Assembly (NCBI GenBank): GCA_021817985.1
Contig: JAKAFK010000032.1
Coordinates: 1 to 38,653 of the forward strand
Direction: 5' to 3'
Origin: Pseudomonadota bacterium
GTDB lineage: Bacteria; Pseudomonadota; Gammaproteobacteria; Burkholderiales; JAKAFK01
Length of the DNA stretch: 38,653 nt
The notes under the pieces were generated by a model. The model made no database searches, was not told the origin of the DNA, and worked only from the letters and a program-made list of their open reading frames with translations. Positions 25,056-30,951 of the stretch are shown in pieces. A program made the translations under genes and the position numbers. Every line of letters begins with the position of its first letter. The stretch's first letter is position 1.

Positions 25056-25397
25056 ATGACGCTTGGCCTTCTGGTGCTGTCGATGTGTGCTGCTTTGGCC
25101 GCGTGCGCGACCGTGACCCCGCTCACGCAAGCGGGACGGAACGTCCAGATTCAGTCAACGAACAGTTCGCTGCCGCCATCGTGCATGAAGCTCGGCCCGA
25201 TCACGGCAAGCGGCGCCCGTTTTTTCGATCCGGAAAACGCAGCCAGAGATGCCCGGCACAGACTCAGGGAAGCGGCCGCCGCTTTGGGCGCAGACACCGT
25301 TGTACTGCTCAGCGAGCACATAGAGGGTCTTCTCACGCGTCCGCGAGTCACGCTACAGGGTGTGGCACTGCGATGCCACGACAGGAGGGCAAGGTAG
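25056..25397 (+). CDS. DUF4156-like lipoprotein
   Basis: From ATG 25056 the protein has 113 aa; a GTG two codons earlier (25050) lies at better spacing from GAGG and may be the true start. The signal sequence MTLGLLVLSMCAALAAC ends in a lipobox with Cys17. The mature part has the DUF4156-type pattern: TPLTQAGRNVQI, a second Cys in SCMKLGPI, then ARHRLREAAAALGADTVVL. DUF4156 proteins are small envelope lipoproteins (E. coli YajI-like) with no known activity. It stands just left of an IS3 remnant. Confidence 0.7.
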   Translation: MTLGLLVLSMCAALAACATVTPLTQAGRNVQIQSTNSSLPPSCMKLGPITASGARFFDPENAARDARHRLREAAAALGADTVVLLSEHIEGLLTRPRVTLQGVALRCHDRRAR

Positions 25398-25619
25398 CAC
25401 GATCTCATCGCCCAGGCGGCCGACTGCCCTAGCTTTGCCGTTCTCGAAGAACGAGAAGAAGAACCTAAAGAGTGCACTTTCAAGCTCGTGCGCATCGCAA
25501 TCGCGCAGGCCCGGTAAAATCATTCTCGGTGAAAGGCGCACCGGTGGAGCTGGTGGCCCTTCCCCTTTTGTGGGCCTAGCGTCCCACCACTCTGATCTGG
25601 TCAAGTTTTTGTAGAGGGA

Positions 25620-26434
25620 TTATTCGTCCTGTTTGCACGGGCGGACGAACCCCAGGAATGACACTGATTCAGGAACGCCCTGGGGGATACGAACCCGAGC
25701 GTTGAGTGACGCCGATCGCAGTTGTAGAAGCCTTACGATGTAGGCGAAGACGTCCCTCGTGGCTTCCTCCCGTGTCGCGTAGCCTGCGCCATGCACACGC
25801 TCGACTTTCGAGCGTGTGCCAAAAGCCTTCCATTGGCGCATTGTCGTAGCCGTGGCCGGTGCCGGTCATCGAGCACCGGAAACCTTCCCGGTCAAGCCAT
25901 GCGCGCACAGCACGGCTGGCATACTGGCTGCCACGGTCTGAGTGGACGGTGAGGCCAGCAGCTGGGCGCCGCCTGAATTTGGCAAACGTCAGCGCGTCTT
26001 CCACAATGTCCTGGGTCCGGATGTGGTGATATCCGACAGCCAGACTTCATTGGGGCGTGAAGTCTGGAACTTCTGCTCCAGCAAGTTGGGGGGCCACCGG
26101 CAACGCGTGCTTCGAGTCCGTCGTCGCCTTGAACTTGCGCTTGGCCTTCGGGAACAGGCCCGCCGCGCGCATCAGGCGTCGCACGCGCTGGATGCCCCCG
26201 GTGTACCCATGGGCCTCGCGCAGCTCAAATGCAATGCGCCGCACGCCATAGATCCTGCCGCTCGCAAGGAAGATCTCCTTGCTCTTGCGCGCAAGCTCGC
26301 GATTGTCCTGGCTTCTGGGCGCCTCCGGTCGCACCCCGCCAGGCATGGCACCCCGCCGGCGAGACCTCCAGTGCCCCGCAAGCCACGACGACCGGATAAT
26401 GGGAGCGTTCCTGCACGATGAATGCGTACTTCAC
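25620..26434 (-). pseudogene. IS3-family OrfB transposase, multiply frameshifted
   Basis: The N-terminus MKYAFIVQERSHYPVVVACGALEVSPAGCHAW is standard for OrfB, but the phase breaks near 26340. The next piece (RELARKSKEIFLASGRIYGVRRIAFELR) breaks near 26090, and a further piece reads EVWLSDITT. The segment between DIT and EDALTFAKF is shorter than in intact copies, so part of the DDE core including the region after the first Asp is deleted. HSDRGSQY and YDNAPMEGFWHTLE (second Asp and catalytic Glu) remain. Further phase changes follow to the end near 25620. Confidence 0.85.
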
Positions 26435-26700
26435 AGACTCTCCTTCGCCAAGTACGCCGCGGCCTTTTTTAAAATCGCGTTTTCCATCTTCAGGCGCGAA
26501 AGGTGCGACTTCAGCTCAGAGATCTCCTGCTGTTCAGGCGCGATCCGCCGCTTGGCCTTCTCCGGCAACAGCATCCCTGCCTGATACTGCTTCCCCCAAT
26601 CCTCGACCAGTTTCGGCAGCGCATCCAGCCTGCGCCCGACATCCCTGTACGACAGGCCCTCCGCCTGCTTGAGCGTCACGGCCTCGACCTTGAAGTCCAC
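26431..26700 (-). pseudogene. IS3-family OrfA (HTH) protein, start codon lost
   Basis: An 89-aa frame beginning VDFKVEAVTLKQAEGLSYRDVGRRL carries the HTH of IS3 OrfA and ends in the leucine-zipper-like EISELKSHLSRLKMENAILKKAAAYL. The conserved N-terminus can be read farther upstream (SRQTFTVDFKVEAV) but meets a TGA before any good start, so the true start has decayed. A GTG at 26700 could serve poorly. Confidence 0.75.
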
Positions 26701-26797
26701 TGTGAACGTCTGCCGGCTCAGTCACCGATTAAGGCGCCGCACACATTCCTCCCACAAGGGTTTTTGATGCGCGGCGGCCCTAAAATTCACTGCCTAG

Positions 26798-26959
26798 CAG
26801 GCTGATGAAAAACTCGCAAATTCACCCGAGTCCGCCAGCCTATTGCACGCGGTATGTTTGTAATCCATTGATTTGCAATTGTCGCAAAGCCGTCGACCAG
26901 TCACCGAAGGTCGTAAATCAGGGCCAAAGACGAAATTTGAGGCGTTTTTCATCACCCTG
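26798..26959. mobile_element. MITE-like element, 162 bp, flanked by CTAG
   Basis: The left end starts CAGGCTGATGAAAAAC; the right end, reverse-complemented, starts CAGGGTGATGAAAAAC: 15 of 16 positions agree, with more similarity inward (CAAATT). Both ends are bordered by CTAG (26794-26797 and 26960-26963), a likely 4-bp target duplication. There is no coding capacity inside. This is the pattern of a non-autonomous element moved by a transposase that targets CTAG, as some IS5-family enzymes do. Confidence 0.75.
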
Positions 26960-27448
26960 CTAGTGCGGCACATTAAGTTTGTGCTCTGTCAGCGCCTGGT
27001 CAACAACCACATTGAGTTTCCAGGCATTCGCCATCATCGACTGCACCACTCGCCGTTGCGCAGCCGGCGATGTTATGGCTGTCTGGAATTTTTTATACAC
27101 CGGATCGCTCAGAATCACCATGAGCCGCTGCAAATCGGAATCCGAAAGGGTCTCGAGCGGCGTCCGCAACACTGAATCCATCACCCCGCCCTTGCCGTTA
27201 ACAGCCCTGCCTAACGCCGGCGCAATTTCCTTCGCGATGCCCTGCCAGACCGCGTTGCTGACGCCGGGGTTGACGCTCTTCGCGGGGGCCAACAGTGTCT
27301 GCACCAACGGAGAATCCGGAGAAAAGAACGTCGTGCTGGAATACTCGCCTTCGATCTTCTGGATTAGAGCCTCGCGCGATACCGGATTAGCCCAAGCTAC
27401 GGTTGTGAAAAGCGAAAACACAGCCCCGATGAGCATGACTGATTTCAT
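26960..27448 (-). CDS. Secreted DUF2059-like protein
   Basis: From ATG 27448, preceded by AAAGGACAGGA, the protein has 162 aa. The signal peptide MKSVMLIGAVFSLFTTVAWA is followed by a helical mature chain. The last half (LETLSDSDLQRLMVILSDPVYKKFQTAITSPAAQRRVVQSMM) resembles DUF2059 proteins, periplasmic helical proteins of unknown role. Its stop codon TAG lies inside the CTAG that borders the MITE, so the element inserted exactly at the end of this gene. It starts 20 bp after the zincin-like gene and is very probably in one operon with it. Confidence 0.7.
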   Translation of the reverse strand: MKSVMLIGAVFSLFTTVAWANPVSREALIQKIEGEYSSTTFFSPDSPLVQTLLAPAKSVNPGVSNAVWQGIAKEIAPALGRAVNGKGGVMDSVLRTPLETLSDSDLQRLMVILSDPVYKKFQTAITSPAAQRRVVQSMMANAWKLNVVVDQALTEHKLNVPH

Positions 27449-27468
27449 TCCTGTCCTTTCCAAAAGAG

Positions 27469-27750
27469 TTAGTCGTGATCAACTTCGTGTGCTCGGGCAT
27501 CAACCTCGTACGGCGCGTTTTCATAGCCGAACTTAGCGACTTGCTTCAAATAAACTGCCAAAAAGCTGGCGCTGTCCCCAGCTGCTTCGTATTGCTGAAC
27601 ATGTCTGAACTCATGAGACATCAGCCGAATACCACTGGCGCCATGACAAACGTAGATCCCGTAACCAAGCGTCAGACCATGCATTTGGGCGCCAAGGAGG
27701 CCCATGTCGAGCGCGAGCCTCTTGAGTTCCGGGTCGTCGGGTTGCGGCAA
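27469..27750 (-). CDS. Very small HExxH zincin-like protein
   Basis: The frame starts at a TTG (27748-27750) that sits 7 nt after a perfect GGAGGT, with a stop codon just upstream in frame, so TTG is the only reasonable start. The 93-aa product contains HEFRHVQQYE (H46, E47, H50), the zinc-binding and catalytic motif of metallopeptidases. A conserved-looking YENAPYEVDARAHE follows at 77-89, whose E82 or E89 could be the third ligand. It is far smaller than secreted zinc proteases and has no signal peptide. Similar HExxHxxQY minimal domains occur in uncharacterised families. It pairs with the DUF2059-like gene 20 bp downstream. Confidence 0.65.
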   Translation of the reverse strand: MPQPDDPELKRLALDMGLLGAQMHGLTLGYGIYVCHGASGIRLMSHEFRHVQQYEAAGDSASFLAVYLKQVAKFGYENAPYEVDARAHEVDHD

Positions 27751-28109
<359 letters not shown>

Positions 28110-28119
28110 GGAGGCCTGC

Positions 28120-28125
28120 ATTTTA
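28120..28125 (-). promoter_or_regulatory. -10 box of tRNA-Ser(CGA)
   Basis: On the minus strand TAAAAT, preceded by TGC (giving an extended -10), lies 10 bp before the mature 5' end, which puts transcription start near 28113. The -35 region (around CTAAAC, about 18 bp upstream) is weak. The A/T-rich stretch 28140-28185 farther up may serve both this tRNA and the divergent mltF. Confidence 0.45.
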
Positions 28126-28196
28126 GCAGTTTCCGCCCCGATTGTTTAGACAAAAAAATATTTACAAAGCATAAAAATTTCCCCACACTGGGCGCC

Positions 28197-30951
<2,755 letters not shown>

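What the first reader, a model, noticed from the sequence alone, without database searches (positions are those of the whole stretch)
26960..27750. Two-gene unit: 93-aa HExxH protein with TTG start and a secreted DUF2059-like protein
The HEFRHVQQYE motif in such a short chain, with a possible third ligand in YENAPYEVDARAHE, suggests a minimal zincin. It is tightly linked to a secreted helical protein, which may be its substrate, inhibitor or partner. No known system of this make-up comes to mind.
Basis: partly seen in the sequence, partly recalled or inferred. Interest (0 to 1): 0.5.

Follow-up and report, generated by a model that had tools for sequence, protein, structure and literature searches.

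The report
IS-truncated zincin beside unrelated secreted protein
What looked like a very short metal-enzyme paired with a secreted partner is most likely the leftover two thirds of an ordinary-length, uncharacterised zinc-peptidase-like gene that a jumping element cut off at its front, lying by accident next to an intact but unrelated gene.

Summary
Both ORFs and the HExxH motif are real; the "minimal zincin" and the "two-gene unit" are not supported. The 93-aa ORF is the C-terminal two thirds of a stand-alone family of about 150 aa (Burkholderia, Cupriavidus, Nitrosospira, Ramlibacter, Acidobacteria and others; 'hypothetical protein' where I saw annotation). Homology runs upstream through the TTG to 27774. 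There an IS3-family remnant ends, at 27775, and an in-frame TGA stands where 43 of 46 relatives have Arg. Twelve strongly conserved N-terminal columns are gone; 31 of 32 C-terminal ones are kept, including H46, E47, H50 and E82. A full-length relative is predicted confidently (pLDDT 95.1); its best structural match is the VgrG2b C-terminal metallopeptidase domain (Z 8.7). The neighbour (162 aa from its ATG) is a complete, secreted-looking protein of another family, 45% identical to a 162-aa homologue in a genome without a zincin hit. It lies beside none of 80 zincin loci. A 170-bp MITE-like repeat sits on its stop codon. All this lies in a 2.6-kb scarred segment below tRNA-Ser where synteny with a same-genus genome breaks. 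Best reading: pseudogene remnant plus bystander. The intact family is an uncharacterised, mildly interesting gluzincin-like group.

The parts
27469..27774 (-). Remnant of a ~150-aa gluzincin-like gene (the 93-aa TTG ORF 27469-27750 plus 8 further codons upstream, one of them a TGA)
   Evidence: Homology to full-length relatives; alignment columns 54 onward present, columns 1-53 absent.
27601..27615 (-). HEFRH motif (residues 46-50)
   Evidence: Translation; H46, E47, H50 invariant in 46 of 46 relatives.
27505..27507 (-). E82, presumed third zinc ligand near the start of the last helix
   Evidence: Invariant in 46 of 46 relatives; helix 80-87 in the model. Ligand role inferred from VgrG2b E983.
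27769..27771 (-). In-frame TGA two codons from the IS edge
   Evidence: alignment column 55, Arg in 43 of 46 relatives; also flagged as '1 TGA' by the profile search.
27775..27962 (-). Remnant of the end of an IS3-family element (terminal bases at 27775; orfB C-terminus up to about 27962)
   Evidence: 27775-27814 is 88% identical to an IS end elsewhere in the genome, the match stopping exactly at 27775; DNA and protein matches to annotated IS3 family transposases. 27963-28017 is unassigned.
26960..27448 (-). Apparently complete gene for a 162-aa secreted-looking protein of unknown family (167 aa if read from the TTG at 27463)
   Evidence: 45% identity over 160 columns to a 162-aa protein with matching ends in genome G635; signal-peptide-like start by my heuristic.
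26794..26963 (.). 170-bp repeat with CTAG...CTAG ends and terminal inverted repeats (MITE-like), overlapping the stop codon of the secreted-protein gene
   Evidence: Four further copies in the genome, 67-93% identical; boundaries.
25669..26700 (-). Second, broken IS3-type element (orfA and pieces of orfB)
   Evidence: HTH_Tnp_1 and HTH_21 over cut-off, rve just below it.
28018..28109 (-). tRNA-Ser(CGA), the edge of the variable segment
   Evidence: same-genus synteny stops exactly at 28018.

Best explanation
The 93-aa ORF is a pseudogene remnant. An IS3-family element inserted into, or recombined within, a gene for a stand-alone ~150-aa gluzincin-like protein. About 50 N-terminal residues (the long first helix and the second helix) were lost; the codons of the first strand remain but lie upstream of the TTG and are interrupted by a TGA. 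What can be translated is the zinc-site half, little decayed at its conserved positions. The TTG is an internal codon of the old gene. The downstream gene is a complete, unrelated gene for a secreted protein that happens to follow it in an IS- and MITE-scarred segment below tRNA-Ser. SHOWN: homology, truncation point, in-frame stop, IS end, a full-length homologue of the neighbour, lack of co-occurrence in what was searched, local loss of synteny. INFERRED: that the fragment is non-functional, that the intact relatives bind zinc and cut peptides, and that the IS rather than another event removed the 5' part.
For: Relatives are ~150 aa: 5 of 6 plasmid regions opened have an annotated CDS of 150-173 aa there (the sixth has no annotation), and 77 of 80 genome loci match from query residue 30 or earlier, 74 from residue 16 or earlier. 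The IS3 end lies at 27775, exactly where gene homology stops, at alignment column 54. TGA at column 55. Twelve of twelve strongly conserved columns before the cut are absent, 31 of 32 after it kept. In the 399-genome search the ten genomes with E <= 1e-10 hold eleven matches; ten start at model position 15 or earlier without a stop, only the window's starts at 50 with a TGA. AlphaFold confidence falls from pLDDT 95.1/pTM 0.90 (full-length L028) to 83.5/0.72 (fragment). Neighbour absent in 80 of 80 loci. Secreted-like ORFs just downstream in relatives: 7 of 76, against 9 of 73 random intervals.
Against: The conserved residues are nearly all kept, so loss of function is not proven by sequence. 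A GGAGG lies 8 bases before the TTG (27759-27763), so the fragment could be translated. The fragment model still has both the HExxH helix and the ligand helix at fair confidence, and natural zincins of ~105-109 aa are among the structural matches to the full-length model (abylysin 4jiu Z 4.1, selecase 4qhj Z 3.7).
Confidence: 0.88

Rival explanations
1. A decayed effector-immunity pair of the VgrG2b type: the zincin was an injected or cargo antibacterial peptidase and the secreted 162-aa protein its periplasmic immunity protein, now orphaned after the effector was cut by the IS. (Compatible with the truncation itself; it differs on what the neighbour is.)
For: The full-length relative's model matches the VgrG2b C-terminal domain best (Z 8.7, 134 residues, 3.6 A, 16% identity). 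In that system a zincin gene is followed by a small gene for an envelope protein (PMC6899460), the arrangement seen here. VgrG2b relatives are called DUF4157 there; 34 of 47 members of this family give hits to eCIS_core (PF13699; that this is the renamed DUF4157 is recalled) at E <= 0.1. The one good homologue of the neighbour lies in a genome with TssC/VipB.
Against: Neither G000 nor its same-genus neighbour G001 holds TssC/VipB, and only 2 of 9 other zincin-bearing genomes searched do. Relatives show no secreted-like gene downstream above control (7 of 76 against 9 of 73). The neighbour's homologue sits in a genome without a zincin hit. The neighbour has no cysteine, whereas the PA0261 family is reported to share partly conserved ones. 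No sequence match of the family profile to the solved VgrG2b domain up to E 10.
Confidence: 0.06
2. A genuine, working mini-zincin: the fragment is translated from the TTG with its GGAGG and functions alone as a ~90-aa gluzincin.
For: All zinc-site residues kept, GGAGG at 8 bases, natural zincins of ~105-109 aa exist.
Against: Loss of the N-terminal helices that the relatives keep; lower model confidence. The consensus scan of 26700-28200 gives only one promoter-like site on that strand, upstream of the tRNA at 28148-28120, none between the IS end and the TTG (other promoter types are not covered). TGA next to the IS edge.
Confidence: 0.05
3. Assembly artefact: the join between zincin and IS end is a misassembly across a repeat in a fragmented genome (184 contigs).
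For: The genome is fragmented, and IS and MITE repeats are common sites of false joins.
Against: The TGA on the gene side of the junction is a separate lesion. The only other matches to 27770-28015 found in the genome are pieces of 88% and 74% identity on C33, so a repeat collapse is unlikely.
Confidence: 0.04

Closest known systems
Stand-alone ~150-aa hypothetical proteins of Burkholderia, Cupriavidus and Granulicella plasmids (WP_012367365.1, WP_115683898.1, WP_013573126.1)
   Same: Same family: 49-56% identity over the 93 aa for these three, same zinc-site residues.
   Different: They are complete; the window copy lacks columns 1-53 and has an in-frame TGA.
C-terminal metallopeptidase domain of VgrG2b (PDB 6h56) with immunity protein PA0261
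   Same: Best structural match of the full-length relative (Z 8.7); HExxH plus a downstream Glu at the top of a helix; small secreted protein encoded next door in the window.
   Different: No detectable sequence match to the profile; stand-alone gene; no TssC in the host genome; the neighbour has no cysteine and is not found beside the relatives.
eCIS_core domain, PF13699 (formerly DUF4157, recalled)
   Same: HExxH stretch aligned; hits at E <= 0.1 in 34 of 47 members, best E 0.00047.
   Different: The window protein (17.5 bits) and the five full-length members whose eCIS_core score was printed (13.3-17 bits) are below the curated cut-off of 22; scores of the other members were not shown. At most about 40 residues align.
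Minigluzincins / selecases (abylysin 4jiu, selecase 4qhj)
   Same: Short gluzincin-like chains, 105-109 residues in the solved entries.
   Different: Weak structural match of the full-length relative (Z 4.1 and 3.7); natural short proteins (recalled), whereas the 93-aa form here is a truncation.

Membership tests
Stand-alone ~150-aa gluzincin-like family (alignment A3) | C-terminal zinc-site half: HExRHVxQYE ... GY..AP.E.DAR..E | tested here: met
   31 of 32 columns conserved at >=85% kept.
Stand-alone ~150-aa gluzincin-like family (alignment A3) | N-terminal third (W20, G32, L35, A43, V46-G47-V48, P51, R55 by alignment column) | tested here: not met
   Absent; replaced by IS3 end at 27775 and a TGA. 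The window holds a remnant, not an intact member.
VgrG2b C-terminal metallopeptidase family | Fold of the 6h56 domain | tested here: inconclusive
   Full-length relative Z 8.7 over 134 of 153 residues, only just above the level the tool calls middling; the window fragment itself gives no match above Z 3.2.
VgrG2b C-terminal metallopeptidase family | HExxH plus downstream Glu ligand | tested here: met
   H46, E47, H50, E82 present; that E82 is the ligand is inferred, coordinates were not at hand.
VgrG2b C-terminal metallopeptidase family | Sequence homology to the solved domain | tested here: not met
   No match of profile A3 to it up to E 10.
VgrG2b C-terminal metallopeptidase family | T6SS in the same genome | tested here: not met
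   No TssC/VipB (PF05943) in G000 or G001; G000 is 96% complete. The paper itself reports relatives in groups that rarely have a T6SS.
VgrG2b C-terminal metallopeptidase family | Small envelope-targeted ORF directly downstream (immunity) | tested here: inconclusive
   Present in the window; in relatives only 7 of 76 have a secreted-like ORF there, against 9 of 73 control intervals, by a simple heuristic; 0 of 80 hold this one.
DUF2059 (neighbour protein) | Match to the Pfam model | tested here: not met
   No DUF2059 hit up to E 10 for the window protein or its homologue.
eCIS_core PF13699 | Score over the curated cut-off | tested here: not met
   Window protein 17.5 bits against 22.
Zincin peptidase (activity) | Zinc binding and peptide cleavage | not testable with these tools
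   Needs purified protein.

The most novel reading that the evidence does not exclude
The intact ~150-aa family is an undescribed, stand-alone, plasmid-travelling branch of VgrG2b-type gluzincins, and this locus is the fossil of one that had a dedicated periplasmic partner: the zincin was broken by an IS while the secreted partner stayed intact as an orphan immunity or inhibitor gene.
Probability: 0.06. Interest if true: 0.45.

Novelty: new member of a known kind. Interest (0 to 1): 0.13.

Why it matters
It removes a false lead: a minimal zincin with a secreted partner would have been a new kind of two-gene system, but the short length comes from a mobile element. It points instead to a ~150-aa gluzincin-like family on chromosomes and plasmids (4 of 10 plasmid records conjugative) that gave no NCBIfam hit (3 members checked), no PADLOC hit (1 checked) and no printed Pfam score over a cut-off, and whose best structural neighbour is an antibacterial effector domain. 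That intact family is the part worth a test.

Tried and rejected
Minimal zincin: rejected because relatives are ~150 aa and the cut coincides with an IS3 end. Conserved pair: rejected. Phage gene: no match in 50,697 phage records for the 93-aa ORF up to E 1e-5 or the neighbour up to E 0.01. Defence system: no PADLOC hit up to E 1 for either window protein or L028; the G635 homologue of the neighbour has a weak JukA hit (E 0.0032 over 44 residues), not followed. Solved relative by sequence: none up to E 10 with profile A2; two chance-level hits with A3, a ribosomal protein and a phosphotransacetylase-like protein. Neighbour in plasmids: none up to E 0.01. The neighbour's weak second hit (G235, E 7e-5, 33% over residues 4-89) belongs to a 198-aa protein of other make-up, and I do not count it as a homologue. 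tRNA-end direct repeat marking an integrated element: none convincing in the window; only the other tRNA-Ser and short chance matches. Empty site in the same genus: not fully shown, because the G001 contigs end on both sides. Foldseek against PDB gave nothing below E 0.16. VIA-align 2 on the fragment gave only Z 3.2 or less, to PPEP-1, PPEP-3 and Zmp1 entries. A search for 'minigluzincin' papers gave five listings, none opened; of the listings only PMC6899460 was opened.

Limits: the scan of genome contigs used one peptide pattern built on the HExRHV stretch and kept 80 of 84 confirmed loci, so relatives without that stretch were missed and the motif's invariance is partly built in. The 46 relatives in A3 are a hand-picked diverse part of the 80 (most near-identical Burkholderia copies and the partial loci left out), and conservation counts refer to those 46. 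For the downstream test 4 of 80 loci had too little sequence and were dropped. The signal-peptide test is my own simple heuristic. The neighbourhood map is mechanical ORF clustering; shared neighbours showed mainly among Burkholderia loci. In some searches the neighbour was given without its initiator Met (161 aa). Organism class names are read from record titles.

Full report
WHAT IS THERE. The first holds HEFRH at residues 46-50 and YENAPYEVDARAHE near its end.

THE 93-AA ORF IS THE BACK PART OF A LONGER GENE. tblastn against plasmids finds 10 records, all covering at least 80% of the 93 aa, in Burkholderia (6), Cupriavidus (2), Granulicella (1) and Pseudoalteromonas (1). I opened six of the ten regions: five have an annotated 'hypothetical protein' of 150-173 aa there, the sixth has no annotation. 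A profile scan of genome contigs confirmed 84 loci, 80 kept, mostly Betaproteobacteria by their titles, with some Gammaproteobacteria, Acidobacteria, a Planctomyces, a Nannocystis and others; 77 of the 80 match from query residue 30 or earlier, and none has a stop inside the matched stretch. The closest to the window by BLAST is L028, from a Nitrosospira metagenome assembly, 66% over 92 aa. In the window the same frame stays alignable for 8 codons upstream of the TTG (TGC, TGA, then IAEVAS), so the TTG is an internal codon of the old gene.

WHAT CUT IT. From 27775 on, the sequence is the end of an IS3-family element: 27775-27814 is 88% identical to an IS end elsewhere in the same genome (G000:C33), the match ending exactly at 27775. 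The stretch behind it, to about 27962, matches plasmid records by DNA (155 records) and by protein (328 records); where the listed matches fall on annotated genes these are IS3 family or IS986/IS6110 transposases. Gene homology resumes at alignment column 54, and column 55 is a TGA in the window where 43 of 46 relatives have Arg. Of 44 columns conserved at 85% or more among 46 relatives, the 12 before the cut are missing and 31 of the 32 after it are kept; the exception is residue 59, D instead of S. A profile search of 399 genomes of the order gives 29 genomes with E <= 0.001, 19 of them weaker than 1e-10 and partial. The ten genomes with E <= 1e-10 hold eleven matches; ten start at model position 15 or earlier in open frames, and only the window's starts at position 50 with a TGA.

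FOLD. AlphaFold2 on the full-length L028 protein with 47 aligned sequences gives pLDDT 95.1, pTM 0.90. The 93-aa fragment with the same sequences gives 83.5 and 0.72. In the fragment H46, E47 and H50 lie on one helix (41-57) and E82 near the start of the last helix (80-87). I could not measure distances. VIA-align 2 places the full-length model nearest the C-terminal metallopeptidase domain of VgrG2b (6h56, Z 8.7, 134 residues, 3.6 A, 16% identity), then IrrE/PprI, a putative Zn peptidase (3c37), BepA, abylysin and PPEPs at Z below 5. Z 8.7 stands clear of the rest but is only just above what the tool calls middling. No sequence match of the profile to any solved chain is meaningful. Pfam sees eCIS_core, below its cut-off wherever a score was printed.

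THE NEIGHBOUR. The secreted-looking protein and its homologue have no family over a cut-off in Pfam or NCBIfam (sub-threshold hits to 7TMR-HDED, Tim44-type models, PYRIN and BH0509), and DUF2059 is not hit. It has no match in the phage and plasmid collections up to E 0.01. Among 100 relatives it is found only in the window's genome. Among 399 genomes of the order there is the window's genome and one weak, partial hit that I do not accept. Among 369 genomes of the class there is one good homologue, in G635, 162 aa, 45% over 160 columns with matching start and end. So the window gene looks complete, although a 170-bp repeat with inverted ends (26794-26963, four further copies in the genome) sits on its stop codon.

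ARE THEY A PAIR? None of the 80 zincin loci (up to 4 kb on each side, less where contigs end) encodes the secreted protein at E <= 1; the only matches among the 97 loci then held were the four copies of the window's own region. G635, with the good homologue of the secreted protein, has no zincin hit. Secreted-like ORFs directly downstream of the zincin occur in 7 of 76 relatives, against 9 of 73 control intervals. The shared strand and short gap are the only support for a unit.

SURROUNDINGS. tRNA-Ser(CGA) ends at 28018. Synteny with the same-genus genome G001 runs from 32512 down to exactly 28018 at 91% and stops. On the other side G001 matches in pieces (67-89%) up to 25380. The 2.6 kb between (25381-28017) holds a broken IS3-type element, the repeat, both ORFs and the IS3 remnant. 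The two ORFs have G+C at third codon positions of 0.59 and 0.68, against 0.78-0.82 in five core-looking genes of the window, which fits acquired DNA. In G001 both contigs run into other sequence and end, so the empty site is not shown.

WHAT IT WORKS LIKE, AND MEMBERSHIP. If the intact relatives work, they most likely work as zinc peptidases of the gluzincin type (two His of HExxH, catalytic Glu, downstream Glu), by analogy with VgrG2b, where the ligands H935, H939 and E983 and zinc binding were reported and no cleaved substrate was identified (PMC6899460, passages and section 10 seen). The VgrG2b/PA0261 effector-immunity pair is the known system closest in make-up. Membership is not met on host T6SS and on sequence detectability, and is inconclusive on fold and on the small downstream gene. 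That paper itself notes that VgrG2b-like proteins in Sphingomonadaceae suggest roles beyond T6SS.

VERDICT. A truncated gene of an uncharacterised gluzincin-like family next to a bystander. Low interest for the finding as given; modest interest for the intact family.

Noticed in passing
window 26794-26963: 170-bp MITE-like repeat with CTAG ends and inverted termini, five copies found in the genome counting this one, here overlapping a stop codon.
   Followed up: partly
window 25381-28017: Variable segment below tRNA-Ser(CGA); the same-genus genome G001 has other sequence at both edges (by eye its ORFs look like a TnpB-type protein after the tRNA, and a GNAT protein and an integrase-like fragment on the other side; no family search was run on them).
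   Followed up: partly
L010-L089: Little-annotated ~150-aa gluzincin-like family, also on plasmids, with a VgrG2b-domain-like predicted fold and shared neighbours mainly within Burkholderia.
   Followed up: partly
L133 1495-1983: Only good homologue found of the secreted 162-aa protein, between genes that by eye look like a methyltransferase and a glycosyltransferase, in a genome that has TssC/VipB but no zincin hit.
   Followed up: partly
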